The notes below the pieces were generated by a model. It did not search any database and was not told where the DNA came from. It worked only from the letters and a program-made list of their open reading frames with translations. A stretch of 64,000 nt of DNA from Macrocystis pyrifera (Eukaryota > Sar > Phaeophyceae > Laminariales > Laminariaceae): contig JASSKH010000005.1 in the NCBI GenBank assembly GCA_031763025.1, positions 4,606,092-4,670,091 of the forward strand, given 5' to 3'. Made by a program: the position numbers and the translations under genes. This document shows, piece by piece, positions 1,960-63,388 of the stretch (its first letter is position 1; each line of letters starts with the position of its first letter).

Positions 1960-2300
1960 GCCGACGTTTTAGTTTGAGTTTTAGAGTTCACCGCACATGC
2001 TGGGAGTTTTGAGACTCGAGAGCTCCGTGATCGATCGACCGCGCACACGCACACTCATCCACTTCACTTCACTTATCTTCCCTTGTCCTCATCCTGTCCT
2101 GTAGGACAAGAAGACCGATTATCACAACACTGGCCCTGAGCGCCATGTTGTTCCATACCTGGTATGTTCTTCTGAGAGCTGAAGCTTGAGCAATTACCAG
2201 TCGGTTCGAAACCTCAGCGGCGGGCAGCCTCATCTACAGTATCTCAGGAGTCGCGCATACACGCCTACTGAGGGATTCCGCCAATATATCCCACCCAGGA
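1960..2300 (+). repeat. LTR-like dispersed repeat, 3' block
   Basis: Aligns along its length with 38690-39030, including GAGAGCTCCGTGATC, CTCATCCTGTCCTGT and CTTCTGAGAGCTGAA. The 1.96 kb copy carries a 7-base insertion CCTGGTA at a TA (2156-2164) that the sister copy lacks. Followed by a 21-base C run (2326-2346). Confidence 0.75.
2156..2164. other. TACCTGGTA micro-insertion site
   Basis: The sister repeat near 38890 reads CATATG where this copy reads CATACCTGGTATG. The difference is CCTGG plus one extra TA, consistent with a transposon excision footprint. Confidence 0.7.
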
Positions 2301-2325
2301 ATCACGCGCCAGATCATGCAGAATG

Positions 2326-2346
2326 CCCCCCCCCCCCCCCCCCCCC
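2326..2346. repeat. Poly-C tract (21 bases)
   Basis: Uninterrupted cytosine run, the reverse sense of the guanine runs elsewhere in the window. Confidence 0.95.
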
Positions 2347-2701
2347 TTCGGCGAAAATAATTGACGGACATTAATTAAAAATGGAGTCGAATCAATCCAA
2401 CACCTGGCACGTTTTTGTCCTCCCGCCTCATACGTAAAATCCGCAGAACGCACGATCTTACTGTCAAACACGGCTCGGAAATACGAGCTGCGACGAAAAC
2501 AACGATTTCACAGTAGTAAGTATCAACAGTATTAATAGTGTTTTATCAATATCGTGTGCGCTTTTTGCCGGGCAAACAATGATGGACATTAATTCAAAGC
2601 CACAAATTTCTTAATAATTTCATGTCTCCACCTGCCTTATCGGTGGAAGTTGGTCCTCGCACGCCCCAGTTAATTTTCTTCTATTTAAAACATAGACGCA
2701 T

Positions 2702-3028
2702 ATTTTTTTTTATTTTTTTTTATCCATCACTTTTACTTCCCAGCCCACTCGTAGGAGGTTTTACCCTCGACGATCTTCTGGACAAGCCGTGGTCACAGGT
2801 GTCGTCCCTTCTCCCCCCCGGTACGTGCCTTTATTTTTTGTCGCGCAATGGGTTCAGCATTCCCACTGCTCGTCGATTTTCATCGAATGTAGCCAACTCA
2901 CGCTTTCGCGCTTTCCGCTTATCAATTTTTTATGCAAGAAAAAGTCCCAATGAGCATGCACTCGGTGGGGCTTGAACCCACGAAATTGATCTTGACAGGC
3001 ACGCGGACCACCTACCAAGCCACCGGGG
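2702..3028 (-). mobile_element. tRNA-derived SINE, copy a
   Basis: On the minus strand it starts with CCGGTGGCTTGGTAGGTGG (A-box-like), followed by GGGTTCAAGCCCCACC (B-box-like). It ends in a poly(A) tract seen here as the T run at 2702-2721. The body contains AAAGGCACGTACCGGGGGG. Pol III transcription is expected from the two boxes. Confidence 0.88.
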
Positions 3029-3046
3029 TATATATATATGTATATA

Positions 3047-3363
3047 TTTTTTTTCATCATCACTTTTACTTTCCAGCCCACTCGCAGGAGGTTTTACCCT
3101 CGACGATCTTCTGGACCAGCCGTGGTCACAGGTGTCGTCCCTTCTCCCCCCCGGTACGTGCCTTTAGTTTTTACGCGCATAGGGTCAGTATTCCCACTGC
3201 TCGTCGATTTTCATCTAATGTACAGCTAACTCACGCTCTTCTCGCGCTTTCCGCTACAATCAATTTATGCAAGAAAAAGTCCCTACGAGCATGCACTCGG
3301 TGAGATTCGAACTCACGAAATTGATTTTGACAGGCTCGCGGACCACCCACCAAGCCACCGGGG
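3047..3363 (-). mobile_element. tRNA-derived SINE, copy b
   Basis: Same orientation as copy a and directly head-to-tail with it, separated by a short TA-rich linker. Its B box reads GAGTTCGAATCTCACC. It differs from copy a at scattered sites, so it is a separate insertion and not a recent duplicate. Confidence 0.88.
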
Positions 3364-3369
3364 ACGCCG

Positions 3370-6004
3370 TACCAACGGCATATATAATATGATACATCCC
3401 TATTATATTTTAACGTTGCTCGGTAGTATCAGCGATGATGATGGTATCCAAAAGTATACGTAACACCTGGTAAATTTTACAAAACGGTAATAATAATACC
3501 AGGTACTTACTAGTATGAAATACGAGGTACCGGTCAATTTTCTCACTCGTCGTGACAAACTATATACGTGCAACCTCGAAATCTATTTCCATCTTTTCCC
3601 CAATACACCCACCCACTTGTTGAATTCTGTAGCTTCAGATTTTGCCTTCCTCATACATACCCAGACTATTGTACGCGTCCTCCACGAATGAGACCATACA
3701 CAACCCGTTCGAAGCACACGCGCGATCGAAGCATCACACACAGCTTGCAAAGCTCAGTTTCGACCAAATCCATCCTCGATCTCGCAGGAGGTGCGCCGTT
3801 TTTTTTATTTTATAAAAAGAATATAGGCGTACGGCTTATTATTGCTTCCACCCCGGCAACATGAGCCATGTAAACAGTACCCAGGTAGATCATACAGATG
3901 AGGAATATACCTGCCAGGAAAGGTCTACAACTTACTGTAGGTCATCAAGTAGTAAGTGGCTCTCGATGGCCTATCCCGAGGTTGCGAAAGTCAAGTAACC
4001 ACTACTGACTACCCCACTGGGGGCATCGGCAACGAACACTCTGCGGCGGTGGTGTAAGATCGAAGACACGCTCATCATGTAGGTTCGTATGTTGTACTTG
4101 TTGAGGGCACAGGAGTCCAAAACGCACACCACGCCTCTTGACCGACAGACGCTGTGTAGACAAAGAAAGCTCGGATCAATAATAATGGTGTTGGTTGTGG
4201 TTGTTCTCACATGGACTCATCGCCAGAAAATCCTTCCTGTCCGCGTGTGCGGTGACAGGATGCAAACTCCATTTAACTCTGGATGGAGTAGGAAGAATAA
4301 CATACCCCATGAGAAATAAATAGTACCAGGTACACCTGAGTGAGGGACGGGTTAGGGTTTCGCACTTGAACGGTACTGATAACGAATAACTAAAAAACAA
4401 TTTTACCACCTCTCAAGAACGGTAATAATCCATCCAATGCACTCACCGCGCGCACGTACTACCCAGCACGTACGTACGCTGTTTCTCCATGTGTTTCCCC
4501 CTATTTCAACTTGTAGCAACGGTCGACTTTCCGGCGTTGTGTCGTGGAACTATCTGCACCAACAACAACCTTTCCCTTCATGCAGGCGACCCAGCCACCC
4601 CCAAAGCAGCGAAAGCTAACAAGAACTGTTTCAACAACAGCAGCCAAATAACAGTGGGGTGATCGATGCACAGCACAACAATCCACTCGACACGAAAAAA
4701 AAGGGAAAAAAACGGCGCTGTGCGTCTTTCATCATCTACGAGAAAAAGACGTACAAGAGGCACATTTCCGAGAGATCACTGCTGCAATACCACAGTAACT
4801 GCTGTTGTATCGCCCCCACTGCCATTTTTATCACAAGTATTATTGCTCGAAGCGCCTGCATTGTACTATGGTTCGAGGGATTCTTGGGTTTCCCTCTCTT
4901 CGGGTCGATTGCCACATGAACTTGATCGAGTAGCTCACATTCGCAAAGTACCAGGCAGGCGTACGTGGTTTATGTTACTATCATCCCTTTGTTCTTCGTG
5001 GTGGGAGACTTTTGTAACCTCGAACTACTAGTAATCGCAGGACAACACTACTACATGATACGCCCACTGCACTAATAAAAAAAAAACGAGGCAGGAAATC
5101 AAAGTATTTCAAGTCCGAATCGTACTAATCAGTATTTACGGTTTGTACTCATTTGACTTTCGTACAAACGCGGCACCGCAAATGTCAGAGGCGGTGCAAC
5201 CAGATGACACGGGCAATGCTGCAGAGAAAACAGGCCGCACCCACTACCCACGAGTGGGCCTCTCCCCGTCAGTCGATCCAAGCCACCTGCATTTTTTTTT
5301 ATGTACGTACGTACATATTTTAAGACGCCAATCAACCAACAAAGCTGTTGTTGGCTGGCGCAAAGAAAGCATAATAGTAACATTGTCGCACACACGAAAG
5401 AAGAAAAAAACGCGTTCTCCACCAACCAATTGCACGAGTTATCAAAACGCTCGGTTGCTCTTTTGCTTCGTTGCGCAACAATCGTTCACCTGAGTGAGGT
5501 AACAAGAAGAAAAAAAAACACACACACACTCAAAAAAAGTTGTTTAGCTATGAATGGCATCCACCTCCTCATCGTCACATTTTCCTAATCAAACCAAACA
5601 AAATCAAGAGCCAAAACCAGACGCAAAAGAGCAGCAGCAGCAGCATAGCAGGGCTCGCCTCCTATTAATATTAATAGTCCAACATGTTGGCAAGACGTGA
5701 AGACGTTTTCCTCCATCAGTGTTGTATTGTATCGTAACGTTCATCAAACGTCCGTGTACTCCTTCCTTGCCCAGCACCCCCGAAAAAATCCACACACAAG
5801 TTTCTTTTCGACACGTCAATCCCCTCTCCCCTCTCGCTGCTTTTTACAACAGCAGGCAAGCCGTCCGTCGGTCATCGGTCGTCGCCAAATCAAAGCCGCT
5901 CCAGCACTACAGCCGTACGTATATATAACTACTGACGCAACATCCGCCGCGCTCCGCTCGAGATCGATCGAAATGCACGTTTCCGTCGGTTCATCGCGTA
6001 TCGT
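3370..6004. other. Unassigned, no recognised gene
   Basis: Many short frames on both strands but no domain, no sustained codon-like bias and no match inside the window. TACCAGGTA occurs at 3498 and 4324. CTATTAATATTAATAG (5662-5677) looks like two overlapping copies of the CTATTAATAG motif. It lies downstream of the transporter gene. Confidence 0.5.

Positions 6005-6068
<64 letters not shown>
6005..6068. repeat. Poly-G tract (64 bases)
   Basis: Uninterrupted run of 64 guanines. It creates spurious glycine and proline frames on the two strands. The length in the assembly may be inaccurate. Confidence 0.9.
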
Positions 6069-7809: not shown

Positions 7810-10800
7810 CTGTATTTTTTAGTCGTCAGGATGCAGGCACGCGCGCACGCACGCACGCAACAGAAGGCAAGGGGAGGGGAAAAGAGGGTTTTAATAGATC
7901 AATTTGCGGAGAAGGGTACGAGGGTAAAAACGATCCGTTTGCTGCGCGGTCAGTGCTGCCCTTTGCTCAAGAAAAGCACTGCTTGTTGGCTGCCGAAACA
8001 GACCTTTCACCCCATCTTGGGACAGAATGATTCAAACACACTCTTTGATACACGAATATAATATTTCACCCCCACCAGGTACCAGGTATCTCTTGACCCC
8101 GACCCTGGGAAATCTCTCCTGAAACAAGCTAGCACAAGGAGCTACGTAGGTGTGGCCTACCATGTGTTCAAGTTCAGGCCAGGGCGCAAACACTAATGCT
8201 TAAAAAGGCGGGCGATTTGCAGTTGCAGGAGTCTCACGGGTAGCTACAGTAGTCTAAAAATCACAAGACCCTCATGATTGCAGTTCTGACAATCGGGACA
8301 TTGGGACCCCGACTCATGGTTGGGTCCAAAAAGAAAAGAAAAGAAGACTCCTTTGCCATCTGGCCACGGCGGCGAAGTCCGGAACACAACTATTAATAGA
8401 TGCTGCCATTTGCCTGCCATTTGCAGGCAGTCACCCGGCGTGCGTGCGCGTAGTGAGAGGTAAAAGCAGCCCAAAGAGCGGACGGGAAGGCGCCACGTAC
8501 TCTACAGGCGAAGGCACGTGTGCGCACGTATGGCTGGCTGCTTATGACTGCGTCGGACCCAGCTCAAACCACAAAATCACATCCGTCAATCGCGACCAAA
8601 GCACGTAACAGCAGCCGTACGTACCGCCGTACCTGGCGAGTCTTTTTTTTTTTTTTTTTTTTGTTCGGAAACGTTTTTTTACCGTGTCGGCAAGGCAACC
8701 AACCACCAACAATGGTAAGACGTGCGCAGAGCCGTGCGGTGCGCACAACATCACTTTGGGGAGCCCAGGAGTACGACCGGAACACCGACAACTCTGGCGT
8801 TACCCAAACGTTTTACGAACGTTGAGCGCCAAGCGGCAGGGGTCAAGATTGTGTCACGCCGCGCCTGTGTCGTTCGACTCCGTGCGTTGAAACTCGGCAT
8901 ACCAACTTTCATCGCCCCCCGACCACGCAGGCCGCCGTTTGGCTGCAATCGTCTCTCGTTCACGGTCGATGTGTAACAACTCCTCTGAAATTCCCCTGAG
9001 GACTATGGAGGTCAACACTGCACTATTCGTCACGCATGGGCGTGTCGTTTCGCTCGCACCGCAACACCAAACAAAAGGCCGCGCAGCAGGTCGACAGACC
9101 CAACAGCGCTCCCGCGTGTGACAATAGCACGCAACCTCCACTTTCATCCATCCCCCGAAAGACGAAAAGGGGACAAAAACATCCCACGTTCACGTTGACG
9201 ACACCTGTACTCCTAAAAAAAAAGCACAGAGGGAATCGCTGCTCATGTATACTATCAATGCATACGACCCCATCAACAGCACGCGGAGATAGATAGATAT
9301 AGATAGATAGATCCGCGGCGGCATTCCACCACGAGATCAATTCAATCTATCGACAACCGACACACTCTTTTTCCCGTCTTAACGCGTCATGATGAAACGG
9401 CTGTCAATACCCGATTGAAACGGCTGTCTAAAATGAAAACAAACGGCTGCCGGGAAAAAAAAAAAAAAAAAAAAAAAACGGAACGGCAAAAACCCGCCGC
9501 AACCACCACTAAAAAAAAACAAAACATGTCTGACCTTGCCACCGATGAGGCAGAACACCATGCCGCTGATGTGGAACTCGATCTTGTACTTCTGGTAGAA
9601 CGCCAACATCCTCCATCTGCTGCGCCCTTCTTGGTGCGAACCCACCACGTCCCGAGACGACGGCATTTTCTTTCTCTCCTGTGAGCGTGAGCGGCATCAC
9701 GTGGGAGGGGAAGGGGGGGCGTACTCATTTGTTGCTTGCCTTAGTCATTTGACCATTGACCACGCATCCCTTTCAAGACGGAGCACCGTGCCTACTCCTA
9801 ATAGAGACACCTCCAACAATTAGACACTCATTACGTTGTTTCCATAAATTACATAGAAACATAGAAACTTTTTGCCAATCTTATCCCCTTCCTGTTTGGC
9901 CTTCTGTGGCCACCATCTATCTCCTAGGACAGCGATTGTTTTCTCGCTGCTATTCATTGTGGGGGGGGGGGGGGGGGGGGGGGGGACGGTTTCGAGCAGG
10001 AATGATATGCCAACCTCTCATTGACCCCGACAAAAAAGACGCAAACAAATGATTAACGATCGGTGTTACCACAACCGTCTCTGCGACAAGCGTGGGCGCC
10101 CAGCGGGAAACGGGTAGGATCAGGTTGCTTGCGCCCGCCCCGTGCGATGCCTCCTTGTTGCACTGTAGCTCGGACGCCAATTTGCATATTTCGTCTCCCA
10201 GAATTCAGATTTTTTTTTGTTCATGTTTTTCCCTTTTTTGGCTTGGGTGGCAGGTGCCTGCATGCGCCCCCCCCCCCCGCGCGCGCCCCCGTCTGCGTCT
10301 ACTGCAGTCTATTTTTACAACATTTTTGTTGTTGGTGCGCAGTCGAAAGTCGAAGTTATCAGTCGTCGTAGCAGAAGGAGAATCTGCCGCTAGTTGTACG
10401 TGTTGGTACTACGTCATATCATATCTCTCCAAATTCACGCAAAAGTCCTTTTGTTTCGTAGTTTTTTTTCCAAAAACAGAACAAACAAACAAAAAAATAA
10501 AATAACAACGCAATGTAATAGATTTTTACCTCCAGAAGGCCCTCGTACTTCTCGGGTGCCGGCAGGATGATCAAGAACGCCGCGGTCAAGCAGCTAACCG
10601 ACGCCAGGATGACGTACTGGATGAACATAGACCCAGTAAGGTAGCCTATCAGCGGCACCAAAGCGCCCGAGATCCCGAACACCACCGTGTTCGCCCCGAG
10701 CCAGGGCCCGGCCTTAGACCCGTGCAGCTTTCGGGTCATTATCTGGCACCCGGTGTCGGTGATCGCGGTGCACAGGCCCATGACGAAGAAGGCGGCGTGC

Positions 10801-13800
10801 AGCACCGCCACGGAGGTGATGAAAGGCATGTACATGAGGATCCCCGTCAGCAGCAGGAGAATTACGGACATCACGTTGTTGCCTCGCATCCAGAGGTAGA
10901 GCTTCGAGGACACCATGGCGCCGATCACGGCTCCCACGCCGCGGGCGATGAACACCGAGCCCACCTGAACAAAAAAAAAGAGGCGTGTTCGTTCGTTCGG
11001 GGGGGGGGGGGGGGGACATATCGTACGTCAGGAGACTACAAACCGGTTGTGGAAGGTCAGGCGTATCAACGTACGCGACCATCAGCACATATTAGACCAA
11101 ACAGGAGTGAACTACTGCTGCTGTTAATGGTTTCAGCGCCGGCAGTTTACGTATACGACCGTTTACGTAGACCAATAAGATTGTTGAAAATTTAGCGCGG
11201 GAATTTTCTTAAACCTGTGACCGAAAGCATGTTTCCGCCGTCACAGCCCACAGTCTGAAACAAGCGTTACCGCCAACACAGGAAAACCGCGCGTTTGCCT
11301 CGGCTACCGCAGCGGTATACCGCGAAAGAAGCCCAACACTCGTTGCCACCTCCCTCCTGACATATACTTGTTCTTGGGTGTCGGTGGGCATAAAAAACGC
11401 GCGCGAAAAATGTTAGGTTCGGACGTCGGGAGGCAGCGTCAAAAAAAAAAAAAAAAAAAAACTCTGCTGGTGAGTGGGACTACGCGACGCGGCGCATGTG
11501 GGCATGGCATGGCAAGGCGCTGTTGCCCTGCTGTGTTCAGTCCGTCATGAGCGCCGCGAGCAGCCGTCACAGCGTGCGCAATTGGTGTTTCATCTCCGGG
11601 AGAATTATTCACACTTAGAACCGTACCATCCTAAAAAATTAACAACACTCAAATCAATCTGTAAATATTTGTGAAATGAAAAGGTTTCAACATGTTGCAA
11701 CATCATATCAATATCCCTTGTTCGGGTTATATCAGTATCAGTGCGCAGGATGCTTATTTAAAACTGTCCTGTTGACCCGGGCAGCATCCAGGGGAGCCGC
11801 TGGCCTATATCTTCGACAAGGAATTACATTTAGAATACGCGCGTTCGGTTTTATCACAATGCTTGTAAAATCCGGTAAAAATGGAATATAGACGAGACGT
11901 ATTACGTACGCAGCTTGCAAAGTTGAGTATCAACTATTTACTCAGTCGAACTCACAGCTGACGTATTTCAAAATTTATAAAATATGTTTACGTGCGCCTG
12001 GTGAGTCATATTATGTGTCCACACTCAACCATAGTCCTGGCTCGGGTACACCACATTTTTCATCTACACGGCAGTATATTATGTATACTGCTGCTGAACA
12101 ATAAAAACAGCTGTGAGTGAGATCGAGGATTTCATCGAGACCCATCACCTTGGCAAGCTGTGTGATACTATTACGGGGGACCATAGTAAATAGGACCTAC
12201 GGTACACACAACAACCTATATATTTACCTGTTTTTACTAACAATATTTGGTCCTATTTACTGTGGTCCCTCGTAGTACTGTCATACCACTGCGATCGCGC
12301 GCGTACTACCACAGGGGTTGGTTGTATGTGGTCTCGTGGCACGCATACAAGTCCGTGCATGCAGAATTCCAGGAGTGGGTGTCTCTACATTTAGCGAAAA
12401 TCTGATACCACTCTGTCCCAAAATATTAGCAACGTTTGTACACTAACTTTCAACCCAAAAGGTGCTTATACTGATCTGTCCCATTACATAAGAAACGGTT
12501 ATACACTAATTTTTAAACCAAAAGGTGCTTATGTTTCGGGACAGAGTAGACAAAATAATTACCAGGTATACAAAGTACTTATATATACTCGCAAGACCCG
12601 AAGAGGGCACGGTATATATTATACTCTTAGAAGTAACAAACCAGGCAAGGGTTACATCGTAGCGGAGGGGAAGCGAGCGCGGCTGAGGCATGGGTTATAC
12701 AGAAAGCAGGGCGGGGGCAGGGGACGCTAGGCGAAATCCAAGCGGCGGCGGAAGGCAACGTCGAGGTCCATCAGCTGTTTCACGAGGCCCGCACGCCTTG
12801 GTGGGCAAGGGCGGAGCCGGTAACGTCAATCGCAAAACGTTGCGCCTTCGACAAACCCCAAGTTTCAGCTGCCACGGTACTCCCATCGAATGATAAACTG
12901 GGATACGGAAAACAGCACGATACACACACAGCACGTAGCCCTTTTGGAAGGACCCCGCGAGAAAGGAAAACGCCATTTAGGTCACCTGGAAAACTCCTGC
13001 GCACCGTTTCCCCCCCCCATTGCTGACTACCAGTACAAGGGACCGGTACCAACTCTGATAAGGAACGTCGGTATACAACGAACCTCTATTAATAGTCCCA
13101 AACATCAAATCACTATAGAGTCCCTACAGCAGTAGACCAGGTAAGGCGCCACCTACTGTAACTGCACCAGGTTCAGGGGCCGGTCGCCCAGAAAGCAAGG
13201 CGGCAACATCGACACTACCGCAGTAGTATGATATACACCAGGCACGAAACGTTCCGACATCATCCGACAACGTTCCGACATCATCCGACCAACCAGTTCG
13301 ACAGAGGTACTAACTGTAGTTGACTGATGCCATGTTGGAACGAACACGATAAGCACGCCCTGGACGACAGACTCGACTCTATTGCTTCGACAACGGACGA
13401 GGGGAGAAATCTATCGATGCCCACTGTCATGACGTACCATACATACGCGAGGCAAGTTTCGTACAACAGTAGTAGTCCATCGGTTTATCATACACGTAGT
13501 CGTGAAACGGAACGATAGACCATGCGCTGATGTGCAATACGAGTATGGCAGCGTTGTTGTTGTTGTAGATGCCGTTGTACTGGTCGTCATTGTCGTCGCC
13601 TTTGTCTTCGCTTTTAGGCGCCGCTCGCCGAAGGACGTTTCGCCTCCGGTTTTTCGCCGTGGCTTTTCCTACGTACAAAGGAACTTCCGATGACTCAATT
13701 GCTGTCGCATAGTTCTTGCTGTACACAACCCCGAGGCGCGTGGCACAAAACTGGCCTTAGAAGGTCAACTCGAGAGTACGAGCGGATGTTTAGACCATAT

Positions 13801-16800
13801 ACTGCTGAATCAAAAACGTTATCCACATACTGGTACCTGGTACACACTATTGTTGACAGTACTCTGGTACAGGCACGTAAGAGCTGCGTCGGCATTCATT
13901 CATGAATATATAGCGGTAGAGCCGTACGCAATAAAAATTATTTGTACACTGCAGCAGTCAAAAATGCCAGGAGACATGTCAAGCCACGGAAAATGTGCGC
14001 TGCCAAAAGGGGTGTAGGGCCGAGTGCTCCACACTAAAAGCTGGTAGTTTGGTGTCAGTCAAGGCATGTCAAGGCAAAGTTGCTGTTTTGTCAACGGTTG
14101 AAAGCGCCTTCTCCTGACATGTTTGACCACAGCTGCACTGGTGAAAACGCTGCGGAACTACTTTCACCTACCGGTCACATCACGGTCACGGCATACTTGA
14201 TACTCGTCGCCGTACACACTCTATGGTGGGAGAAAAAACTAAGCGTGCTGCGTTTGTTTCCCAGCGGGTATCGGACATCGGACAGGGCTAGGGCTGACAG
14301 TTGGAAGGACCGTCGTGCCAGAGCTGGGCGTACCATGCAACCATGCATGCAGCGCGAGCGAAACAAGGGAGGCGGCATGCAACGAATACCCTGCTTTGTG
14401 TCCCCCGCTAATATACTACAAGGTATTGATGAGTATTGTATGATGGTTTCCGGTACTATCATAAAATAATAGGTGCACACGACAATGCATCTACTCGTAC
14501 ATATTCTATGATGAGCGATCCAAGTAATAAAATGTATCACGCCAAGCTGGAGAAGCTGAGTTCTGGGGGAAAAAAAACTTCCCGTAGCTCAAACGTTTTC
14601 TGAGTTTCTTTTTTCCCTAAATACTACCAGGTATATATGTACTGATATACCACTACGTCGGTACCCGCTAAGGCATGGTTCAGTCATCACAATATTCCAC
14701 GTATACCCCGAATACACCAATGTAGGCTCACGAAAAAAATAAGAAACAACCTACGGTCTGTATTAAAAGGGTCATTCTTGTCAAGAGAGTTTTTTTCCGT
14801 AATTTTCATATTTTGACCGCGCAAATTGTCAGTCTTCCGAATTTTCCTCAATTTTTCTTTACAAATATGTCAATTTTGACTTTCCTGATTTGTTCGCTTT
14901 CAGGAGAATTTCACGAATGGTGACAGAACGCCTCCGTATCTTGATATATATATCTCCAATTATTTCCAAACTTTGCAAATTTCGGAAAAAAAAACTTTCC
15001 GACAAGAATGAGGAGCCTAAACGGGGAGAACTGAAGGCTCGCTCGCTTCCGGGCGGACGCCAATGCTACGTGGCATATAATAATATTACGGGGGTCCATA
15101 GTTAATAGGACCTATGGTATACATAGAAACCTATATATTCAACTATTCCCTCTAACAATAATTGGTCCTATTTACTACTGTATGGTCCCCCGTAATAGTC
15201 GACTAACTACTTGGGATTTGAGTGGTTTGTCCCTGAAAAAGATACTGCACTCCTAAAATGGCTAAGGCCCATTCTTATCGGAGAGCAGTCAATCCAGAAT
15301 TTCCAAATTATTTCTCAATTGTGGAAATAATATGAAATATGTACGTATCAAGTATCAAGATACTGGAGGCGTTCGGTCACAAGTTGTGAAAATCTTCACA
15401 ACGCAAAAAAATCAGGAAAGTTAGGCTTTCACATGTTTAGGGAAAAAATCGCAGCAAAAATCCGGACGAGCAAAACAATATTGCGCGAACAAAATATTGA
15501 AATTATGGGGAAAAAAAGCGCTTTCCGACGAGGATGCTAAGCTCAAGGTTAAACGATGATATCACAATATTCAAAGGTTCTACTGGTGAATTCCAAGGTT
15601 TTGCTCAGATTTGTTGATAGCGGGCCAATACTCTGCCTGGTATGATGTGCAGAAAATGATACCGGCAACCGGTCACTAGTAATAACTTCTACCTGGTATT
15701 CATAGTACGGAGGGCCATAGTAAATAGGACCTACGGTACACACAAAAACCTACATATTTCCCTATTTTTACCAACAACATTTCGGCCTATTTACTATGGC
15801 CCCCCCCCCGTAAATAGTACCCGGTACGATATACGGTATCAACACACGAGAAAAAAAAACACACCGACGGCGAAACACAAGCTGTTTGTGGGTGCCCGAG
15901 GGGATATGGGTCGGTTGGCATGGTAATACCATACCTCCAGTCTACGTGCCAAAAAGGGCGCCGCCCACGACCAGCTAGCTGACGGTAATCACGTACTAAC
16001 CGTATCATGCTGCACTTACGTATAGCGGAAAAGAAGACAGAGACAATGCTTCTAAGAACACCAGACCACATATATAACCCTCGCACCACCGCTCGTCATC
16101 GAAGCAGCAGGCCAGAGGCACGAACAGACAGCCCAGTTCTCGTACTTGGACGGCATTATCCACGAAAACATGACTATGCTACTCGTGCCGCCAACTGCTG
16201 TGCAGCTGGTTCCAACGTGGTCTTCCGCTGCCTTCTTTATTTTTTTGTTTTCTTGTTTTTGTGCTTGATCCTCTGTGATTTTCATTATATTTTTTTTCTC
16301 CTCTCTTCTTCGGTTGATGAAGAGAGTCGTGCGGCGTGGGTGGATTACGACCCTGCTTTGCTTGTATCGTACCAGGGTATTGTCCAACGCCGAGGGGCGG
16401 GGCATAGTTGACGAACGCAGGACGGAGACGGCAGACAGGGTAGCAAGGTCTCAAGCGGACTAGTAGGGAGAACCTGGCTACCGTATGAGTATAAATTACT
16501 GCCGCTACCTGGAGGTTGCTTTGTGCTTCGGTTTGCCTGTTGTTTTCCCTTGGTTCTTAGTCTGACTCTGTTTATTAGTAGAGTGGTGTTTCTCTCTTGA
16601 GCGCACTTTTTTTCAGGTGTCTTGTCACATCCCCTGCCCTGCGGGGGGAGGCACGACACTTTTTTTCTTCTCTCTTTTACGTGTTATCTCTTTCGATTTC
16701 TTTTTTCTTTCTTTCTTTCTTTTCTTGTCTTTGTTTTCTCTCATCTTTTGTCATAGAATATATGCCTGTCGTGCCTGTGATATCCACCACCTGGTACGAT

Positions 16801-17841: not shown

Positions 17842-17908
<67 letters not shown>

Positions 17909-20900
17909 AGCGGCAGTACTGACACTTGGCACCGCTATTGACGAGAATGGAAGGAGACGGCAAAGGGTGTGGCTAGGTTCTCCAATCGATTTTATAGGTC
18001 AGACGGGCACCCATGCATGTTACTTATCACCGTCTGGAAAACGTTGCTCTCTTCTTTGTTTTTATTATTTTGCTTCGTCTCTCCATTTGTTTCCTTTCCT
18101 TTCCTTTCCCCGCCCCGCCGTCCGTATGCCGGTCTATATCTCTCCTTCGTGTTGCTTCGTCCGCGTGGCAGCTATCTGTCCTTCCTGAGTATGTATGCTT
18201 TCCGTCTAGCAGCCTTTCTTATCTACTACGGGGGACCATAGTAAATAGGACCAAATATTGTTAGTGAAAATAGCGAAATATATAGGTTTTGTGGGTACCG
18301 TAGGTCCTATTTACTGTGGGCCCCCGTAACAGCGTGTCATCATTGCAGAATTTAGTTTTGTTGTGTAGTCTTTTGTTCTTATTGTCTAATCTTGCTCGTG
18401 TTGTTGTGTTCTCGTACCCGGTAAGCTGGCACTTCACTTGCTTGACCCTTGAATTTGCGATTATCTTATTTGTTTTTTGGGTCTTCCTCTGTATCACAGT
18501 CCGTGACCACAGAAACGGTATCTCTCGAGGATAAGGAATCAGGACGGACATTTGGTGTACTGATGAAGCCGGGGAGGAAGGACGATTTAATGTGAAGACA
18601 ACAACAACAACGAAAGCAACAACAGAAGTTTGTATCTCTCCAGGCTTGAAGAATCGGCACCGACACTGGTTGTGCTCGATGTCGACGCGCAGAAAGAACG
18701 GTTTGATGTCAAGCACGCACACACATAGAACACAAAGACCAACACACAGCACACCCTGCCCCGGGAAAGAATGTCTGCGCCACGTTTCTCCAAAACGACA
18801 ACTATGAATGATGTAATACTATGCATGGGGGCACAGACGACAAAAACGGTGGCTTTGGAAATGCATAGGTCTGCGGTAAGTTTCCACAAATACCTCTCTC
18901 CCTCGCTGCACGCTGCGCACTCCTGTCGTGAAATTACGCTTGGATAATCGTCCGAGTGTGTGTGTGTTCTTTGTACCCGTTGACATACAGCACAACCAGT
19001 GTCCGTGCGGATTCGTCAGTCCTGGCGAGATGCGAGCTCTGTGGTCAGAAATCGACTACGCAGGGTCACGAAACGATGACACAGAAGCAGTTCGTCGTAC
19101 TCGTACGGCGTAGGGTTGTTCAGGAGCAAGCGGAGTAAACACCGCAATGCCGTGTCATCTTACTGGATACGACAGGAAACGACATACCTATTCAAAAAAA
19201 AGAGAGAAACATCGAAGGAAAAAAAGGAAAGCAAATACTCTCTCCAGGAAGCAAAAAAAAAAAAACAAATCAAAACAAAACAAAAAACAAAAAAGATGTT
19301 GCAGACAACACAAAAACAAGCGAGAGGAACACAACGGCCGCATATAAATCGTGTATGACTATTACGGGGGGCCATTTAGTAAACAGGACCTACGGTACAC
19401 ACTAAAATCTGTATGTTTCCCTATTTTGGCTACTACGGGGGACCACAGTAAAATAGGACCAAATATTGCTGGTAAAACATGGAAATATAAAAATATACCA
19501 GGTACGTGTTTGTGTGTACGTAGGTCCTATCAACTATGGTCCTCCCGTAAAATAACAGGCATAACAACCGAAGCACAGCAAACCAAGAAGAAAACAGGGA
19601 CCCTCCAGGCAGCCGCAGTTTGTGGTGCACGTACATAGAATAGCCAGGTTCTTCCTATCGATGGGCAGTCTGGTACCTCACTCATCTGTCATGTCATGCC
19701 GTCTCCTTTCCTGCGTTCGTCATCCGTGCTACGAGTAATAATAGCAGGTACCAGTTACCACTTCCCAGGTATGTGCGTATAGACATATCTGATCGGAAAT
19801 ATTGGATACCTTTCCACATAGCCACAACATCTACAAAAGTACCTTATCTTTCCCATCACAGGTTCGGGGCGAAAAAATGGTGATCATTACTCGTATCTGG
19901 TATAATCATGTAAAGCGGTCGAACGTAAAGAGTGATCGTATTGCAGCACCATCAACCACCCAATTTTATCTCTCTCTTCCTTTCTTCTATTGACGAGCCT
20001 TATTGTTAAAGGAGTCGTGTGGTGTGGGGATGACGAGCCTGCTTTGCTTGTTTCGTATTGCCTGACGCCGAGGAGCGGGGCATGGTTGACGAACGCACGA
20101 CGGAGAGGCAGACAGGGTAGCAAGGTCTCAAGCGGACTAGTAGGGAGAACCTGGCTACCGTATGAGTATAAATTACTGCCGCTACCTGGAGGGTGCTTTG
20201 TGCTTTGGATTGCCTGTTATTTTCCCTTGGTTCTTAATCTAACTCTGTTACTAAGTAGTAGTGTTTTTTCTTTTTCTTTTGTTCCAGCTCATTCTTTTCA
20301 AGTGTCTGCCACATCCCCTGCGGGGGGGGGCACGACATCAGTAGTTGGTTTCTTGCATTTTTTTTTGTTTTTCTTTCGATTTTTTCTTCGTTGTTTTGAT
20401 TTTTTCTTTGCTTTCTTTCGTTTCTCTATGTCATAGAATGTGTGTGTCGTCCCTGTCGTATTCAGAATGATGACATGGCATCATGTGCTTACTGCATAAT
20501 AACGTGGTATCGCTGCATGTGCATGTGTGGCGTAATTTAGTGACCATATCATATGACATGTATCTCTCTACCAGGATTGAAGAATCGGCACGGACACTGG
20601 TTGTGCTAGATGTCGACGGGTAGAAAGAACGGTTTCATGTGAAGAAACACTCACACACCACGAGCCAGCAGTCAATACTATCATTAAAAATACCAGGTAC
20701 AACATACGTACCACGATCCTATATACGGATACAGTCAGTCAATTTGCGGTTTGGAAGGAGTTGAGGATACGAGACCCGCGCCGTCCCAGCGAGCGGTGAC
20801 GGAACGCCCGGCGGACACCTTCCTTCCTTCCCGTGCACGTAGAACGATACCTAGAGCGTGTCGCTTGAGAGTTTCCGTCGTCACATCCGCAATCAACTTG

Positions 20901-23463: not shown

Positions 23464-23495
<32 letters not shown>

Positions 23496-28770: not shown

Positions 28771-29070
28771 GTTTTGAGACACGCCTGCCAGGTGTTGTGT
28801 GTGTCCCAGAGATAGCGCAGTCGATGGGACGAAGAAAAGAGAGAGCATCAGCACTTTTGCCATTTACCTAAACTCACACGCGTTGGTTTCTTTTTTCGTC
28901 CTGCCGCACCCCCTCCGCCCACGGCGGAGGGCGATTCAGGATCCAGGTACTTCCTGTAAAACACATGCTGGGACAAGGGAGAGCGAGACTATAGTTTTCG
29001 TGGTGTGTACGTTCGCTTCCTGCCCCGCCCCCCTCAGTGGCTACTATTAACAACCCTTTCAGGACTTCAA

Positions 29071-34958: not shown

Positions 34959-35079
34959 TATCTGCTTTCACACGCGGGATGTCCAAGGCCGTCTCGATGG
35001 CCTTGCATACACCCAGACCGGCTACCACACGCCCGAAAATACTCTATATATCGCTGAGCCACTTGGCCCATAGTCTCCG

Positions 35080-39066: not shown

Positions 39067-39549
39067 AAGTGTGGTGTTAATACCCTCGCAACTCGACTGC
39101 ACCCACACACGCAGTAAACCCATAGATTCGTACCTGGTACCTGATATTTTAGGATTTCGAACGCCGCCGTTGTACAGACTGGTTCAAGCAAAACTAAAAC
39201 AAATTGCGTCAACAGTAAACGCTGCATGCTATAGCTACTTTCGAGGACATGTCGCGAGCCCAGGGACACCGCGAAACAGCATCGATCCTCCTGTGTACCC
39301 TGTTTTGTGATACCTTAGGTCCACCTTCAGGTACTTACATTGTGTTCCCTCGCCCACTAGGCTGGAAACAAGCCGTTGACTGCTACCGCCAATTTATCCG
39401 TGTAAAAAACGTCCATGCCCAAGGCTTTGTTTTGCGTCTTCAGGGGAGACAGCTCTGTATCGCCCCCCACGTTTTTTAGAGTTCCTGGTACACCTGCACC
39501 CCTGCTTGGGATGAGCGCTTGACGAGATGATGCATCGACTTACGGGAAG
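39067..39549. other. Unassigned, between repeat and RT element
   Basis: TACCTGGTA at 39131. Short frames only. Confidence 0.4.
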
Positions 39550-47787: not shown

Positions 47788-49463
47788 TGTCCTTTGTTAT
47801 AGAGTATCGCAAGGTGGTAGATGGTTACGTATCATCACAGAGTACTCACAGTGTACATGTACAAACCAAGTGCATGTTATGTTCATTTTGATCCACGAAG
47901 CAAAACGCAAGGGGGGGGCGGTTGCGCATGCACCCGACGAGAATGCCTGCATATTATGCATGTTTCGAGTGATAGTCAACGCTATAGGTTCAGCGCCGCT
48001 AGTGCTTAGCATAGGGAACTATTTCGACAGCTGGCTGCATGCAGCGAATGCCATATTTAACAGTACAGCATGCAGGAGGCGTGCTAGTGCACGAAACGCC
48101 GAGAGACAAACTCCTGAACGAAAACGAAAAACTCGAAGAACTTGACGGCGTGGTGGGATCAGGTTTAAGGTATAGATGAATTAAACTGGTATGGTGTAAA
48201 GGGTGTTTGAGCTTGCCTAGTAAGCGAGCAAGGTAGGGGCTGCAGCCGCAAGAATGTCGCCACAGGACCAGTGGCGACAAGGGTGGGCCGCCACGCAGAA
48301 TTGTTGCCTAAAAGGGGCTGCCTTGGACCGGCGAAGGTGCGATGCAAAGACAATACGGACGCGTGCCACAATAGAAGATCGGGCATACACCTGGCAGCAG
48401 TTCTTAGACAACTTATTTCTGGCTGATCGAGGCCTCTTTGCTGAAGAACTAGCCAAGAGTTTTATTTCGATTGCTTTCCGACAATAGGCAGGGCATTGCT
48501 CATTCACGACGAAAAAGCTGACATTATTGGTCGAATACCACCAATTTCATCCAATCAATTCCTTCTCGCTGGGGATACGCAATTGAATACGCACTACCAT
48601 CTTCTCCCCTATCATCATACCTGCTAGGACATCATCATCGGAATATACGTGGCTATCTTTATTCGCCGTGCGTCCTACTCCGCATCTACCTCGCACCCCC
48701 ACGAAATGGGGAGGTTCGTTCAAGTCTTCAGTTGTTTTTTTGGTGGTGTTCTTAGGCAATGACCTTGTTCAATGGGGCTTGCCCGTTCATTTTTCTCACA
48801 AAGCCAGGTTGTACATGAGGTGGAGAGAAAGAGAGCTGTTAAAAAAAGAGGAGCCCCCGCAATTATAAAGGAAGGACCCCTCTCCCACCGTAGCATGCGT
48901 CTGTGTCGACCCTCAGTGCCAACCAAACCCACCCGATAACTATCAAGGGGAGAGATGATAAGGAAATCCCGGAGGATTGAGGAAGCCTCCTTACTTTTCT
49001 GTGAAGTGTGAGCAGGCACGCCCGTATCGATTGATCCCAAACCACACAGCCCCAATCTCTGAGTCCCACCAACATCGCCACCACAATTCATGGGCGTTCG
49101 TTCGAATGCCCTGGAGGTGGGGAGGGCAGACGTTGCACCAAGTTCACTCTAACAGCTGCGGATAAAAATGGACACGCGGATGTTCGAGCTCGGCAAGATT
49201 TCATTGTGCACGTCGAGAGGGTGGGGTGAGGACCCTGCCGGGGGCGTTCATGAAATTTATAGGGTGTACCGTAGTGAACACTTAGAACGGGACGGGCGTG
49301 TTGGGCGAAGAACACCACTCACGATTGTTTGGCTATCTGTGATGGCAGAGAAAAACTACTGCACAACATGCCAGGTGTGTTCCAAGTTTGTGCAACGTTC
49401 GATTCTCATGCGTCATGCCATCCTACCGTTTGAGCGTCGTGTTGGAATTTACACAAGGCACTA
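47788..49463. other. Unassigned stretch
   Basis: Frames of 60-120 codons on both strands, none recognised. The plus frame 48254-48487 (AYTWQQFLDNLFLADRGLF) has a protein-like composition but no family is recognised. Confidence 0.4.
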
Positions 49464-49568
49464 TTACGGGGGGCCATAGTAAATAGGACCAAATATTGTT
49501 AGTAAACATATGGAAATATGTGGGTGTTTGTGTGTACCGTAGGTCCTATTAACTATGGTCCCCCGTAA
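49464..49568 (+). mobile_element. MITE family 1, copy 16
   Basis: In CACTA|TTACGG...CCGTAA|TAGG context. Ends are near consensus; the copy is close to the family average. Confidence 0.92.
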
Positions 49569-50500
49569 TAGGTTAAAGCCTGAAATAGTCATGTCGGCGA
49601 ATATGGCTACGTACTACAAAATCAACTGCGCAAGCTTTGGGTACCAGTTCGCGCGAGGTATCCTTTTTCGAACAGGCGTCAGCCGTTTGATCAACGACGA
49701 CCGATTCAGGGGGGATATAAACCATTATGGGTTCACAGAACGAGTCCACCAAAGACTACGAAAACATTTTCGGACGACAACACAGCAGTACCGGAACCAG
49801 AAGATACGCAGGACAATGAAAATATATCGTTCGAAAATACAAAGTCATGTGGGAGCATAGCTGTGTAATGCTGGACCCAGACGGCATGAAACCGGACGTA
49901 CCGAAAGTGCGCAACACGAGTATCAGACCCAGGGTTCATCTGTCAAATATCCTTGGACGGTTGGACAAGGACAGCTTCAGGAGGAGATTCCGGGTCACAT
50001 CGAACAACCGGAGAACGCTTCACTTCGCAATGAATTATATAAAAAGTCAGCTCATCCCAGTTCGCATCGTAGCACTTCAAGAATGGGTGATTCAAGAAAC
50101 AATCATGGTGCACGTCGACAACATCAACCACCTCGACAGACAAGTTATGTTCCAAGCAAACCTTCAGCGCACCTCGCGAAAAAGGTTCAACACGAGAGAC
50201 ACGCTATGACTTCATCACTATGAAGATACTCGTAGAACACCTTCAATACTGCGCTGGAAATATCTGGGAACATCACGGAGAAATTGCTGGATCCAACAGT
50301 GCAGGAAGGTGCAACTTCAACGACATACAATGCGGCATCACTTGGAGGCATCAGCATCAACATCAGCACCAGCATCCGCATCACCGCCTCGCCAAGGGAC
50401 TAGAGGAGGCTATTGGTGACTCATTCTGCTTTAAGGAATATTTGAGCAGTAACTGGCTGCTGAACTCTCACCATTTGAGTAAGATTGTCAGAAGTTAGGA
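49569..50500 (+). other. Possible degenerate coding stretch
   Basis: Three plus-strand frames follow each other: 49555-49860 (KINCASFGYQFARGILFRTG), 49847-50209 (RPRVHLSNILGRLDKDSFRRR) and 50220-50498 with a His/Gln run near 50341. The frames overlap or abut but do not form one product, and no family is recognised. Confidence 0.3.
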
Positions 50501-57640: not shown

Positions 57641-59996
57641 CAAGCTTGAAGAGTGACTCTTTCCGGAGCGCCAAATATGTATCTATCTAGCAGCTGCAAG
57701 AAATAATCTAACTGCAATGATGGGCGCGTGTATCCCAGAAGCATGGTACAGTTCTAAACAGGCACGCGGCGAGGACCGCCGGCGGTCACCGTACGGATCC
57801 CGCAGTCAGACCGAGGGCAGGCAGTGGCGATAGAAACGGAAGCATATTACCATACGATACGAGTAGGTGACAACGAACTGCTGTAGGTCGGCGCGGGGTC
57901 AAGGTGCCGCCCATGGGGGAGAAAGTCGGGGTTGACTGCTACGAAAACAGTCTTTGAATATATATATATGTGTGTGTTCCACGTATACAGGAGGAAAACT
58001 TCCCAGAATATTCCTCGAATTTCCGATCATGCGGAGTTGGGAAGTCTACCGGAGAACGGAAGTGAACAAGAACGCCAGGGTGGTTTTTATAGCTTACTTC
58101 GTGCATAGTCATGAAACTCGTCGAAATCGTCGTCTGTGACGGGGTGGTGGCAGCGGTGATGGTAGAGCAGCGTAGTGTATTGAGCTGTGTGGTGGCACTG
58201 TTCGGCTTGAGAAACACCCGACGAAAAAGCCCATATTCTTCGAATATACTAGCAGGAATATTCGCGGTAAGGGAAGTGAACCCACCAGCTAAAATACGCA
58301 ACAGTACACCCCCCTTTTTAGTGCATGTTTGGTGATGTGGTGGGGTTTTCACAGCTCGAGATCGGTTGAAAGAAAAATCGGTAGATCAGGTTGTTCGCGG
58401 ATATCGGGAGATTATATGTACCTGGTAGGCACTATCGAAAAACTTTTTTTGGGAACTTCAGACGGCAGCACTTTTGGGCCAAACCAATCATGACTGACGA
58501 GGAGGTTCTTCGAGGACACTGAAGAATTGAATTGCCTATAAACTATCGCTGGAAGACAAACTCGGGTTTACCACTGGTTTTCGATCATGTTGTCAAGTAT
58601 TCGGGTCTGAGTGATAGCACCTTCCTGGTTTCAAGTCATTCGGGTAATGCAGTAGTTTATTTTTTTTTTTATGTGTGGATGGTGTGATTGGAAAGCGCGC
58701 TGCACGTTGTCAGATGGCGAACGGAAAGAAAAAAAAAGAAATAATAAGATATACCTATGTTCTATACGCCATGCTTATCGGGGGTGGAGAGCATTGTTCA
58801 TCGCCCTGAAGGCCAGGTTCCGGGGTGGGTTTTAGAACTCCCTCAGCGACGAGCCTGATCAACATTAGGTGCACCCTCACCTTCCGTACCACGTATCAAC
58901 GGCCGCAAGCAATAGCACGACATGGGCGAAGCCATGATTGTTAGCTACACCAGCTATCGAGGCCAGTCAACCTATTCGACGATTCGTTTTCTAGAGCCCT
59001 CACCGCCCCTTCCCCCTCCGACGGTTATAGTGGACTTCCTCCCCACGGCTGGAACGGGGGCTAGCGATGTTCACCGATAGCTCCCGCGCGCCTCTCCTCT
59101 CGCCCCGCCCACTCGTCCCCTGCGATACCGGCTCGCGAAAGGTGTCATTGCCACTCTCAATCGAAGAAAGAACAAAAGTCGGCGGCGGCTCCGTCTTTTC
59201 ACTGGCCGCGCGTCACCGTCGACTACTACACCACATTTTCTCCACGCCAAGTTATACGGTAGACAAGGGGGAGCGGGGTGGGGTAACTCTGGTTATTGCA
59301 ACGGTGTGTATGCCGGCATATGGTTTCTAAGATGAGGAGGCGGCCTGTATCTAATGTATCTCGCACACCCCACAACAAAGCGACATTTTTCGTTGATAAG
59401 AAAGGTGCACTCAACCCGATACACAAGCCTAAGAGCTAGCTATATGTGTATATGGGTCCACCACGAATCATGCTGCAAAGCACAAGCGGGATTGCAAACA
59501 AGGGGGGGAGTTCCACACGTTGAAGAGCCACCCAGGACCCAGGCAAAACCTTTTTTTTTTAAGCCTACTGTAACAGTTCCCGCCTCCATCCTGGGGGAGA
59601 AAAATACCCTTTCTTCGACTCCCCTTCCTCTCGATCGTGGGCTGTTCTTTTAACATCTCCGGCGCTACGTTGGTTGGTCCGTCAATTTTAACGTCCACTC
59701 CCGTCCGACCGTGACCCTTTTCGTGCCGCACTATATACTTACTGTACATTAGCGTAAATCAAGTCTGACTCTAATTTCAAGCTGTTTTGTCCTCGAAACG
59801 GGAACGCCGTTCTGAAGAGGATAAGGTCCATACGTAGTAGAAACAAACAGGCACGATTTTCGGAGACTTGGAGAACGAAAAAGCACTCTCACGGGTCACA
59901 GCTGTGGTTGGGCGTATGGTTTGGTGCAACACGGCTTCCTCGGCCTTTCTTCTTTTTCTGTAGTTGTGAGGTATTTTGGCGTTGGAGTGAAACTAT
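57641..59996. other. Unassigned stretch
   Basis: A 137-codon minus frame (57939-58352, GGFTSLTANIPASIFEEYG) is the best candidate but has no recognised domain. 58590-58712 repeats 43992-44110. TACCTGGTA at 58419. Confidence 0.4.
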
Positions 59997-62288: not shown

Positions 62289-62428
62289 GTAACAAACGCA
62301 GGAAAAACAGCAAGCCATCACAACAGTCTGCTGTAGAACGCTGGCGGACCTGCTCCGGGGTATACCCTGGACGAACGTACAGAAACAACGGAAGTGTTGG
62401 GGGAGAGCTTTCGACCATGCGCGTGACC

Positions 62429-62454
62429 GGGGGGGGGGGGGGGGGGGGGGGGGG
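62429..62454. repeat. Poly-G tract (26 bases)
   Basis: A second G run of 17 lies at 62647-62663. Between them is GC-rich DNA without a recognised gene. The text after this run (CAATTGTTGCTTGCCTT, CCATTGACCACGCATCCCTTTC) resembles 9730-9775. Confidence 0.9.
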
Positions 62455-62880
62455 TACTCTCAATTGTTGCTTGCCTTGTAGGTCATTTGGCCATTGACCA
62501 CGCATCCCTTTCGGGACGGCGGGGTTAGTCTGCGCTATTTTGGTGGGCGTTTTCGTCAGTCGATTGTGATGAGGAGCTGAAAAGGGAAGAAGCAATCTCG
62601 CGCGAGTCACTCGGTCCGCGCTGTTCTCTGAAGCCTGCGGGATAGAGGGGGGGGGGGGGGGGGTAGACTTTTCCGGAAAGTAGAGGGAGGGAGAGATAAG
62701 CAAAGAGATCACATCCGCGGCTGGGGCACGAACGTCGTCACTACTGCGAAGCTTAAGCAGGACGGGGGCACACTCAAGAATGCCACCACATATGGTCACG
62801 GTGAGCGCAAGCATGCCTGCTTTAATAGGTTTCGTGTAATGTTTCTGCAGCTGTTACTAGTGTAGTATCTATCTACCCTC

Positions 62881-62903
62881 TAGTACTACTACTACTGCTG
62901 CTG

Positions 62904-62979
<76 letters not shown>

Positions 62980-63027
62980 CACTACTACTACTGCTACTAC
63001 TAACTACTACTACTACTGCTACTACTG

Positions 63028-63059
<32 letters not shown>

Positions 63060-63110
63060 GCTACTACTGCTACTACTGCTACTACTGCTGCTGCTGCACT
63101 ACCACCACCC
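62881..63110. repeat. TAC/CTA trinucleotide microsatellite
   Basis: Some 230 bp of CTA/TAC triplets with GCT interruptions toward the right. On the minus strand it reads as AGT/GTA and gives Ser- or Val-rich frames that are not genes. Confidence 0.97.
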
Positions 63111-63388
63111 CTGTCACTAGACAAGCCTTGGCTGGTCCATACCAGGTATGTGGCATCGCCTATGAACGTTACTATTGTGTTCATGCTGCATGTCGTCTAA
63201 AGGGAAAAAATACTGAATACAGCAGTATGGTCCCTCTTGAGACTTCAGACAGAGATACGGACCAGTGAAAAATTGACGGTTACAGCAGCGGCCACCGTGT
63301 TGTCGGAGGACTGTACACTGGGTGGTTTCCGAGATGCAGCGGTATAAATCGTTTGGCACAGGCGCCACAAGGCGCTCTACGCTAGAGG

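What the first reader, a model, noticed from the sequence alone, without database searches (positions are those of the whole stretch)
2156..63148. TACC(A/T)GGTA: 19 copies of a micro-insertion with TA duplication
Found at 2156, 3498, 4324, 8080, 12560, 13834, 14625, 15690, 19496, 20691, 21332, 21592, 25720, 29488, 30024, 38404, 39131, 58419 and 63140. About 0.5 are expected. Sister comparisons show the same event: CATA[CCTGGTA]TG against CATATG (2156 against about 38890), TCGTA[CCAGGGTA]TTG against TCGTATTG (16370), and one MITE copy (19496) with a motif absent from the other 17. The form TA-CC(A/T)GG-TA, with an ambiguous central base, is just like the C(A/T)G footprint known for Sleeping Beauty-type Tc1 elements, where a central mismatch is repaired either way. 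This predicts an unseen TA-targeting transposon whose ends begin CC(A/T)GG or similar.
Basis: partly seen in the sequence, partly recalled or inferred. Interest (0 to 1): 0.88.

Follow-up and report, generated by a model that had tools for sequence, protein, structure and literature searches.

The report
Transposon scars littering giant kelp genome
A nine-letter DNA scar, most likely left each time a jumping gene cut itself out of a TA site, occurs about 120,000 times in a brown alga's genome, while the jumping gene that made it has not been found.

Summary
TACC(A/T)GGTA occurs 19 times in the window against 0.41 expected, and 121,279 times in the 537-Mb source assembly against 2,421 for the reversed control. 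Size and contig number match the published giant kelp assembly, so the host is probably Macrocystis pyrifera.

The sites arise by 7-bp gain at a TA. Of 40 aligned copies of one repeat, 6 carry the gain at the same TA, in both A and T forms; 31 show none. TA is the commonest duplicated dinucleotide among small gains. Sites decay at all nine positions. There are 5,620 tandem doubles, control 0.

Two other TA scars occur beside it: TATTAATA, fitting a resident MITE, and TAC(A/T)GTA, the Sleeping Beauty form.

Not shown: the element itself. None with TACCWGG ends turned up in 276 kb (window included); 43 DDE_1 transposase matches could not be tied to it. One written prediction about double-scar order failed.

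The parts
2156..2164 (.). F2 footprint TACCTGGTA, +7 bp at a TA of a repeat of which 40 copies were aligned
3497..3505 (.). F2 site TACCAGGTA
4324..4332 (.). F2 site TACCAGGTA
8080..8088 (.). F2 site TACCAGGTA, preceded in register by CACCAGG (probable double)
12560..12568 (.). F2 site TACCAGGTA
13834..13842 (.). F2 site TACCTGGTA
14625..14633 (.). F2 site TACCAGGTA
15690..15698 (.). F2 site TACCTGGTA
19496..19504 (.). F2 footprint TACCAGGTA inside a MITE copy; +7 against the copy at 1580, +5 against most others
20691..20699 (.). F2 site TACCAGGTA
21332..21340 (.). F2 site TACCTGGTA in a TA microsatellite
21592..21600 (.). F2 site TACCTGGTA
25720..25728 (.). F2 site TACCTGGTA
29488..29496 (.). 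F2 site TACCTGGTA, shared with 30024 by segmental duplication
30024..30032 (.). F2 site TACCTGGTA, shared with 29488
38402..38410 (.). F2 site TACCAGGTA
39131..39139 (.). F2 site TACCTGGTA followed in register by CCTGATA (probable decayed double)
58419..58427 (.). F2 site TACCTGGTA
63140..63148 (.). F2 site TACCAGGTA
16370..16379 (.). variant footprint TACCAGGGTA, +8 bp against two relatives
2235..2241 (.). F1 footprint TACAGTA, +5 bp; 38 of 40 aligned copies lack a 5-bp gain here (L030 has TACTTTA; L059 has a 3-bp gain)
15176..15182 (.). F1 footprint TACTGTA in a MITE copy, +5 bp against many sibling copies
27039..27045 (.). F1 footprint TACTGTA, +5 bp against two relatives
26977..26984 (.). 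F3 footprint TATTAATA, +6 bp against relatives
450..558 (.). resident MITE copy (TA, TIR TTACGGGGG..., TA), the likely source of F3
12169..12277 (.). MITE copy, cTA flank on one side
42166..42274 (.). MITE copy with cTA flanks
49462..49570 (.). MITE copy with cTA flanks

Best explanation
TACC(A/T)GGTA is the excision footprint of a cut-and-paste transposon that inserts at TA and duplicates it. On leaving, staggered cuts leave the first five bases of each end on the flanking DNA. Because those bases read CCAGG (or CCTGG), the two 3' overhangs anneal with one central A:A or T:T mismatch. Repair of the mismatch gives A or T, so TA becomes TACC(A/T)GGTA, a gain of seven bases. Shown: gain of 7 bp at TA, both centre forms, recurrence at one TA, decay at all positions, tandem doubles, and parallel scars of other types. 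Inferred: the transposase, the five-base stagger, and the CCWGG ends. My confidence is about 0.8 for 'excision footprint of a TA-targeting element' and about 0.55 for the five-base self-annealing version.
For: Enrichment: 19 against 0.41; 121,279 against 2,421. Origin by gain: 40 copies of a 260-bp repeat compared (the 40 that were scored out of 187 candidates); 6 carry the 7-bp gain at one TA (3 exact, 3 decayed; one also with a nearby deletion), 31 have no gain, 3 have gains of 3-5 bp. The carriers are scattered on the tree apart from one weak pair. Across 264 kb, TA is the commonest duplicated dinucleotide among non-low-complexity gains, 18 of 149, with the next at 10. Decay: 85 perfect (expected 1.3) and 144 one-mismatch (expected 42), at all nine positions. 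Target: the base outside TA is C or T in 81% of flanks against 61% for all TA, and A in 5% against 19%. Doubles: 5,620, control 0. Internal parallel: TATTAATA, 51 against 1.24 in 264 kb, gained as +6 bp. C precedes TA in 12 of the 24 MITE end matches (of 34 listed) that keep TA, like the 46% for TATTAATA against 21% for all TA. TAC(A/T)GTA gained as +5 bp at three places in the window. Full fill-in product TACCATGGTA: 2,743 against 911 control, 44 times rarer than TACCWGGTA.
Against: No element with TACCWGG ends was found in 276 kb, window included. The few inverted pairs that begin CCWGG are pairs of footprints (14625/21340; L010 4077/8227) or inverted copies of a known repeat (20183/26930). 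DDE_3 and Transposase_1 gave no match; in the second the control genomes gave none either, so it shows nothing. Of the 43 DDE_1 matches 4 loci were looked at and no TA-flanked inverted ends were found beyond one weak pair in L066. My written prediction for A-then-T doubles was 2,201; the count was 1,409, and same-type doubles are 64% rather than 50%. Only 9 of 85 sampled F2 sites lie in alignable relatives: 3 show a clear gap, 1 a poor gap, 1 is ungapped with 3 mismatches, 2 are one shared site, 2 align poorly. The F1 parallel is weaker than its gains suggest: only 3 of 10 alignable TACWGTA words show a 5-bp gap, and its excess (98 against 36) is hardly above that of TACCGTA (72 against 33). 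A 5-base stagger is not known to me for Tc1/mariner (recalled).
Confidence: 0.8

Rival explanations
1. The scars come from a transposon with ordinary three-base overhangs CCA/TGG (mariner-like ends), joined with loss or overlap of one base, which also gives an A or T centre. This is a rival to the end model, not to the footprint reading.
For: It predicts the ambiguous centre equally well; TACCATGGTA, the untrimmed product, is threefold over its control (2,743 against 911). SB and mariner transposases nick three bases inside the element (PMC7827188, passages).
Against: The untrimmed product is 44 times rarer than TACCWGGTA, and the CCA overhangs have no matching bases to make the one-base overlap so uniform. 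TACCAGGGTA with a +8 gain needs bases beyond CCA.
Confidence: 0.2
2. The palindrome is a protein-binding or regulatory site spread or kept by selection.
For: It is a quasi-palindrome with a preferred flanking base on both sides.
Against: It arises by 7-bp gains at TA, decays at all positions, occurs as in-register doubles sharing one TA, and numbers 121,279.
Confidence: 0.04
3. Part of the count is secondary: the 7-bp unit is copied by replication slippage or rides inside duplicated segments and satellites.
For: Same-type doubles are 64% of 5,620; 29488 and 30024 are one duplicated site; pairs about 400 bp apart recur on small contig C1.
Against: Most single sites have unrelated flanks: only 9 of 85 sampled sites lie in any alignable repeat of the sample.
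Confidence: 0.1
4. A host-programmed DNA elimination system, run by a domesticated TA-cutting transposase, makes uniform scars instead of a selfish element.
For: The scar is far more uniform than reported plant excision repair (8 of 94 perfect in rice, PMC4423477, passages), and no element was seen.
Against: Nothing in brown algae suggests programmed elimination to my knowledge (recalled); scars fitting a resident MITE family and an SB-type family sit beside it.
Confidence: 0.03

Closest known systems
Sleeping Beauty / Tc1-like excision footprint TAC(A/T)GTA
   Same: Three-base overhangs and footprints equal to the overhangs are stated in PMC7827188 (passages); the A/T mismatch rule is recalled.
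   Different: Five bases instead of three between the TAs; no element or transposase tied to it. The three-base form is itself present here as a separate scar.
Mariner-Tc1 elements and MITEs of Ectocarpus (17 families, 11,912 copies, PMC12477816, passages)
   Same: Brown algal Mariner-Tc1 elements, mostly non-autonomous.
   Different: That paper's main text holds 'footprint' and 'excision' zero times; no match of ends could be made, supplements not readable.
Resident TTACGGGGG MITE of this genome
   Same: TA-flanked; its predicted scar TATTAATA is abundant and gained as +6 bp.
   Different: Its ends cannot yield CCWGG, so it is a parallel and not the source.
Pogo/Fot/CENP-B-like DDE_1 genes of the same assembly
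   Same: DDE_1 is the nuclease domain of TA-targeting pogo elements (recalled); 43 matches.
   Different: No convincing TA-flanked terminal repeats at the 4 of 43 loci examined; they may be host genes.

Membership tests
IS630-Tc1-mariner (TA-targeting) transposons | TA target site, duplicated | tested here: met
   Gains duplicate TA; TA is 18 of 149 gains, the top dinucleotide; 6 of 40 aligned copies gain at one TA
IS630-Tc1-mariner (TA-targeting) transposons | Short footprint derived from the element's own ends | tested here: inconclusive
   Uniform CCWGG scar, but the element's ends are unknown
IS630-Tc1-mariner (TA-targeting) transposons | Element with terminal inverted repeats flanked by TA | tested here: inconclusive
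   Not found in 276 kb, window included; low-copy elements would be missed
IS630-Tc1-mariner (TA-targeting) transposons | DDE/D transposase | tested here: inconclusive
   DDE_3 and Transposase_1 none at E 0.001; DDE_1 43 matches not linked to the scar
Sleeping Beauty-type footprint | Three-base footprint C(A/T)G between TAs | tested here: not met
   F2 has five bases; 7-bp gains. Met by the separate F1 scar
Sleeping Beauty-type footprint | Centre base A or T in about equal share | tested here: met
   T 10, A 9, C 2 in the window; TACCTGGTA 49, TACCAGGTA 44, C centre 7, G centre 3 in 276 kb
Sleeping Beauty-type footprint | Palindromic target preference around TA | tested here: met
   RTAY preference and T at +3 (0.42 against 0.27) in 85 sites; that this resembles the SB target ANNTANNT is recalled

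The most novel reading that the evidence does not exclude
A TA-specific transposon unlike any described, cutting with a five-base stagger so that its quasi-palindromic ends CC(A/T)GG re-anneal, has jumped at least a hundred thousand times through this kelp's germline while staying at very low copy number, or has since been lost. The genome would then hold a near-complete, datable log of its excisions.
Probability: 0.4. Interest if true: 0.85.

Novelty: new variant of a known kind. Interest (0 to 1): 0.7.

Why it matters
Excision footprints are normally seen one at a time. Here one 9-bp scar, occupying about 0.2% of a 537-Mb genome (121,279 x 9 bp), together with two sister scars, would give a genome-wide record of cut-and-paste transposition, of target choice and of break repair in a complex multicellular brown alga. 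A five-base self-annealing end would be a new variant of the Tc1/mariner excision scheme. It also gives a ready test: any strain that still holds the element at a locus where another holds the scar would reveal the missing transposon.

Tried and rejected
Regulatory palindrome: rejected on gain, decay and doubles. Element ends: TIR searches with TA flanks found only the TTACGGGGG MITE as a clear repeated family (the printout was cut in the middle, but its rows beginning CC were shown). Half-sites TACCWGG share no continuation: no 6 following bases were seen more than twice. Large insertions between relatives: 55 candidates, two with a CCWGG word near one edge (L012, L014), none at both. Other collections, by a MITE pattern only: viral contigs 0 hits; genome contigs 1 hit, a MITE copy at the end of a bacterial MAG contig without F2. 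Literature: the two 9-mers as text give 217 papers, of which the 20 listed are unrelated by title; 'transposon footprints' + Ectocarpus 0; brown algae + transposon excision + footprint 0; others (10 listed; 15 of 216 listed) show no paper on such scars by title. Double-order model: it fitted the first 50 rows (22 AT, 1 TA, 13 AA, 14 TT), but the genome counts AT 1,409, TA 609, same type 3,602 did not meet the written prediction. Those first rows come from small, low-numbered contigs and were unrepresentative.

Full report
Check. The pattern TACC(A/T)GGTA occurs 19 times in the window; shuffles give 0.41 on average and 2 at most. Among TACCNGGTA the centre is T 10, A 9, C 2, G 0. Among the TA words with a two-base palindrome and a one-base centre that one search listed, only this one (21) and the MITE word TAGGNCCTA (14) exceed 3.

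Host. The one exon tested (7228-7818, minus strand) is 69% identical to an Ectocarpus sp. protein and 65% to a Choristocarpus one among named hits. The window's assembly has 537,376,219 bases in 223 contigs. The giant kelp paper (passages seen, PMC10498591) gives 537 MB, 35 scaffolds and 188 contigs, which sum to 223. Giant kelp is therefore my inference; no call names the assembly.

Genome scale. The word occurs 121,279 times, its reversed control 2,421 times: one per 4.4 kb. In 20 evenly spaced 10-kb pieces from the first 4.4 Mb of contig C219 plus the window (264 kb), 85 sites are seen against 2.28 expected.

Origin by gain. In the window, 2156 gains 7 bp against its relative, 16370 gains 8 bp (TACCAGGGTA) against two relatives, and 19496 gains 7 or 5 bp against MITE copies, depending on the alignment. 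Over 264 kb, 149 non-low-complexity small gains passed the flank filter. TA is duplicated in 18, the next dinucleotide in 10. The 18 include TACCTGGTA (L020), the near forms TACCAAGTA and TACCTGATA, and TACCAGGGTA, as well as TACAGTA, TACTGTA (twice) and TACCGTA; four are 4-bp gains such as TACGTA, and one pair (TAGTGTGTA) is in duplicated DNA. 2156 and 19496 did not enter that list. A per-site view covers only 9 of 85 F2 sites: 3 clear gaps, 1 poor gap, 1 ungapped with 3 mismatches, 1 shared pair (2 sites), 2 poor alignments.

The best case is the repeat at 2030-2290. The genome search scored 40 of 187 candidates, two of them in the window. I fetched the other 38 and aligned all 40. The usual sequence is TTTCTTTCATATGTTC. 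Six copies carry the 7-bp gain at that TA: W2030 (T form), L030 and L060 (A form; L060 also lacks four bases nearby), L036 (T form, last TA now CA), and L026 and L045 with 2-3 further changes. Three copies have gains of 3, 4 and 5 bp; 31 have none, two of them being shorter. The carriers do not cluster, apart from W2030 and L026 with support 0.79. So several independent gains probably fell on one TA, in both centre forms.

Age and neutrality. Perfect sites 85 (expected 1.3), one mismatch 144 (expected 42), two mismatches 490 (expected 480). The single mismatches fall on all nine positions (8 at the centre, 12 to 21 elsewhere). That looks like decay, not selection.

Target. The base outside each TA is C or T in 81% of F2 flanks (61% for all TA), and the third base out is T in 42% (27%). 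A-side and T-side flanks look alike, as expected if the centre is settled after the break.

Sister scars. TATTAATA is found 10 times in the window (expected 0.45) and 51 times in 264 kb (expected 1.24). It is gained as +6 bp against relatives at 26977 (one search places the gap differently and shows a net 3 inside the word) and in L015; these are the 2 of 51 sites that can be aligned. The window's repeated MITE is TA + TTACGGGGG... + TA, about 108 bp. Of 34 listed end matches 24 keep TA, and in 12 of these the preceding base is C, like the 46% for TATTAATA and unlike the 21% for all TA. I read TATTAATA as that MITE's footprint (inference). TAC(A/T)GTA, the SB form, is 98 against 36 in 264 kb, but TACCGTA is 72 against 33, so the count alone proves little. 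It is gained as +5 bp at 2235, 15176 and 27039, which are 3 of the 10 alignable TACWGTA words; the others are mostly ungapped or identical. In the aligned repeat, L030 has a +5 gain at the 2235 site too, now TACTTTA. Footprints nest in footprints: in 264 kb F2F2 6, F1F1 9, F3F3 2, F2F1 2, F1F3 3, each expected 0.1 or fewer, and F2F3 0.

Doubles. TACCWGGTACCWGGTA: 5,620 genome-wide, control 0. The first 50 rows suggested a strict order rule. I wrote down the prediction that A-then-T doubles would be 2,201. The counts are A-then-T 1,409 and T-then-A 609, leaving 3,602 of the same type. The order bias of 2.3 to 1 stands, but the equal-type excess is unexplained. Slippage of the 7-bp unit, or repair that is not independent of strand, would do it.

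End model. A 3-base CCA overhang simply filled in would give TACCATGGTA: 2,743 against 911 control, 44 times rarer than TACCWGGTA. Self-annealing CCAGG ends give TACC(A/T)GGTA directly. This is inference until an element is seen. SB and mariner nick three bases inside the element (PMC7827188, passages), so five would be a variant.

The missing element. No TA-flanked inverted ends starting CCWGG in the window or in 276 kb made of the window, the 20 pieces and four overlapping 3-kb loci centred on F2 sites, apart from pairs of footprints (14625/21340; L010 4077/8227) and inverted copies of a repeat (20183/26930). Half-sites show no common continuation. A family of under about a thousand copies could be missed (my estimate). 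DDE_3 and Transposase_1: none at E 0.001 (the second control gave nothing anywhere, so absence is not shown). DDE_1: 43 matches at E 1 or better, many with open frames. I fetched 4 of 43 loci and the left flanks of two; apart from one weak pair in L066, no TA-flanked inverted ends were found. One stretch near a DDE_1 gene reads TACAGTAGGGGGCCC, a lone CAG-type end.

Verdict. The scars are very probably excision footprints of a TA-targeting cut-and-paste element; the exact end chemistry is likely but unproved. I saw no description of such scars in brown algae in the listings or the passages; most subscription journals are outside that library.

Noticed in passing
window 450-62291: Abundant MITE family of about 108 bp, TIR TTACGGGGG, TA-flanked, at times tandem or nested; copies also in sampled loci such as L007, L008, L014, L020, L021, L024, L025.
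   Followed up: partly
L001 1-113: A copy of this MITE sits at the end of a contig of a Saprospiraceae MAG (JALZVB010000211.1), suggesting algal contamination or a chimeric contig in that genome record.
   Followed up: partly
window 28289-28867 (-), with ORFs to 27260: ORFs with reverse-transcriptase-like residues (YADD), probably a LINE-type retroelement (motif read from the translation, not searched).
   Followed up: no
window 2700-3366, 22388-22730, 23342-23487, 35078-35413: Repeat of up to about 330 bp in both orientations, up to 91% identical over that length, ending in a poly-A/T tract; it looks SINE-like.
   Followed up: no
window 1738-1901 and 13959-14125: Two copies of a short repeat; the first has long inverted ends (CCAAAGATGTCAGGAGACA...) and no TA flanks.
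   Followed up: no
264-kb sample: Further TA words are enriched, TATCATA/TATGATA (74 against 26), TATAATA (54 against 20) and TAGACTA/TAGTCTA (29 against 12.6), possibly scars of more transposon families.
   Followed up: no
L064, L065, L068, L069 (C202, C162): DDE_1 genes near GGGTCGGGTC-type tandem repeats shared between loci; could be host genes or part of a large element.
   Followed up: partly
window 6005-6068, 17842-17906: Uninterrupted poly-G tracts of 64 and 65 bases.
   Followed up: no
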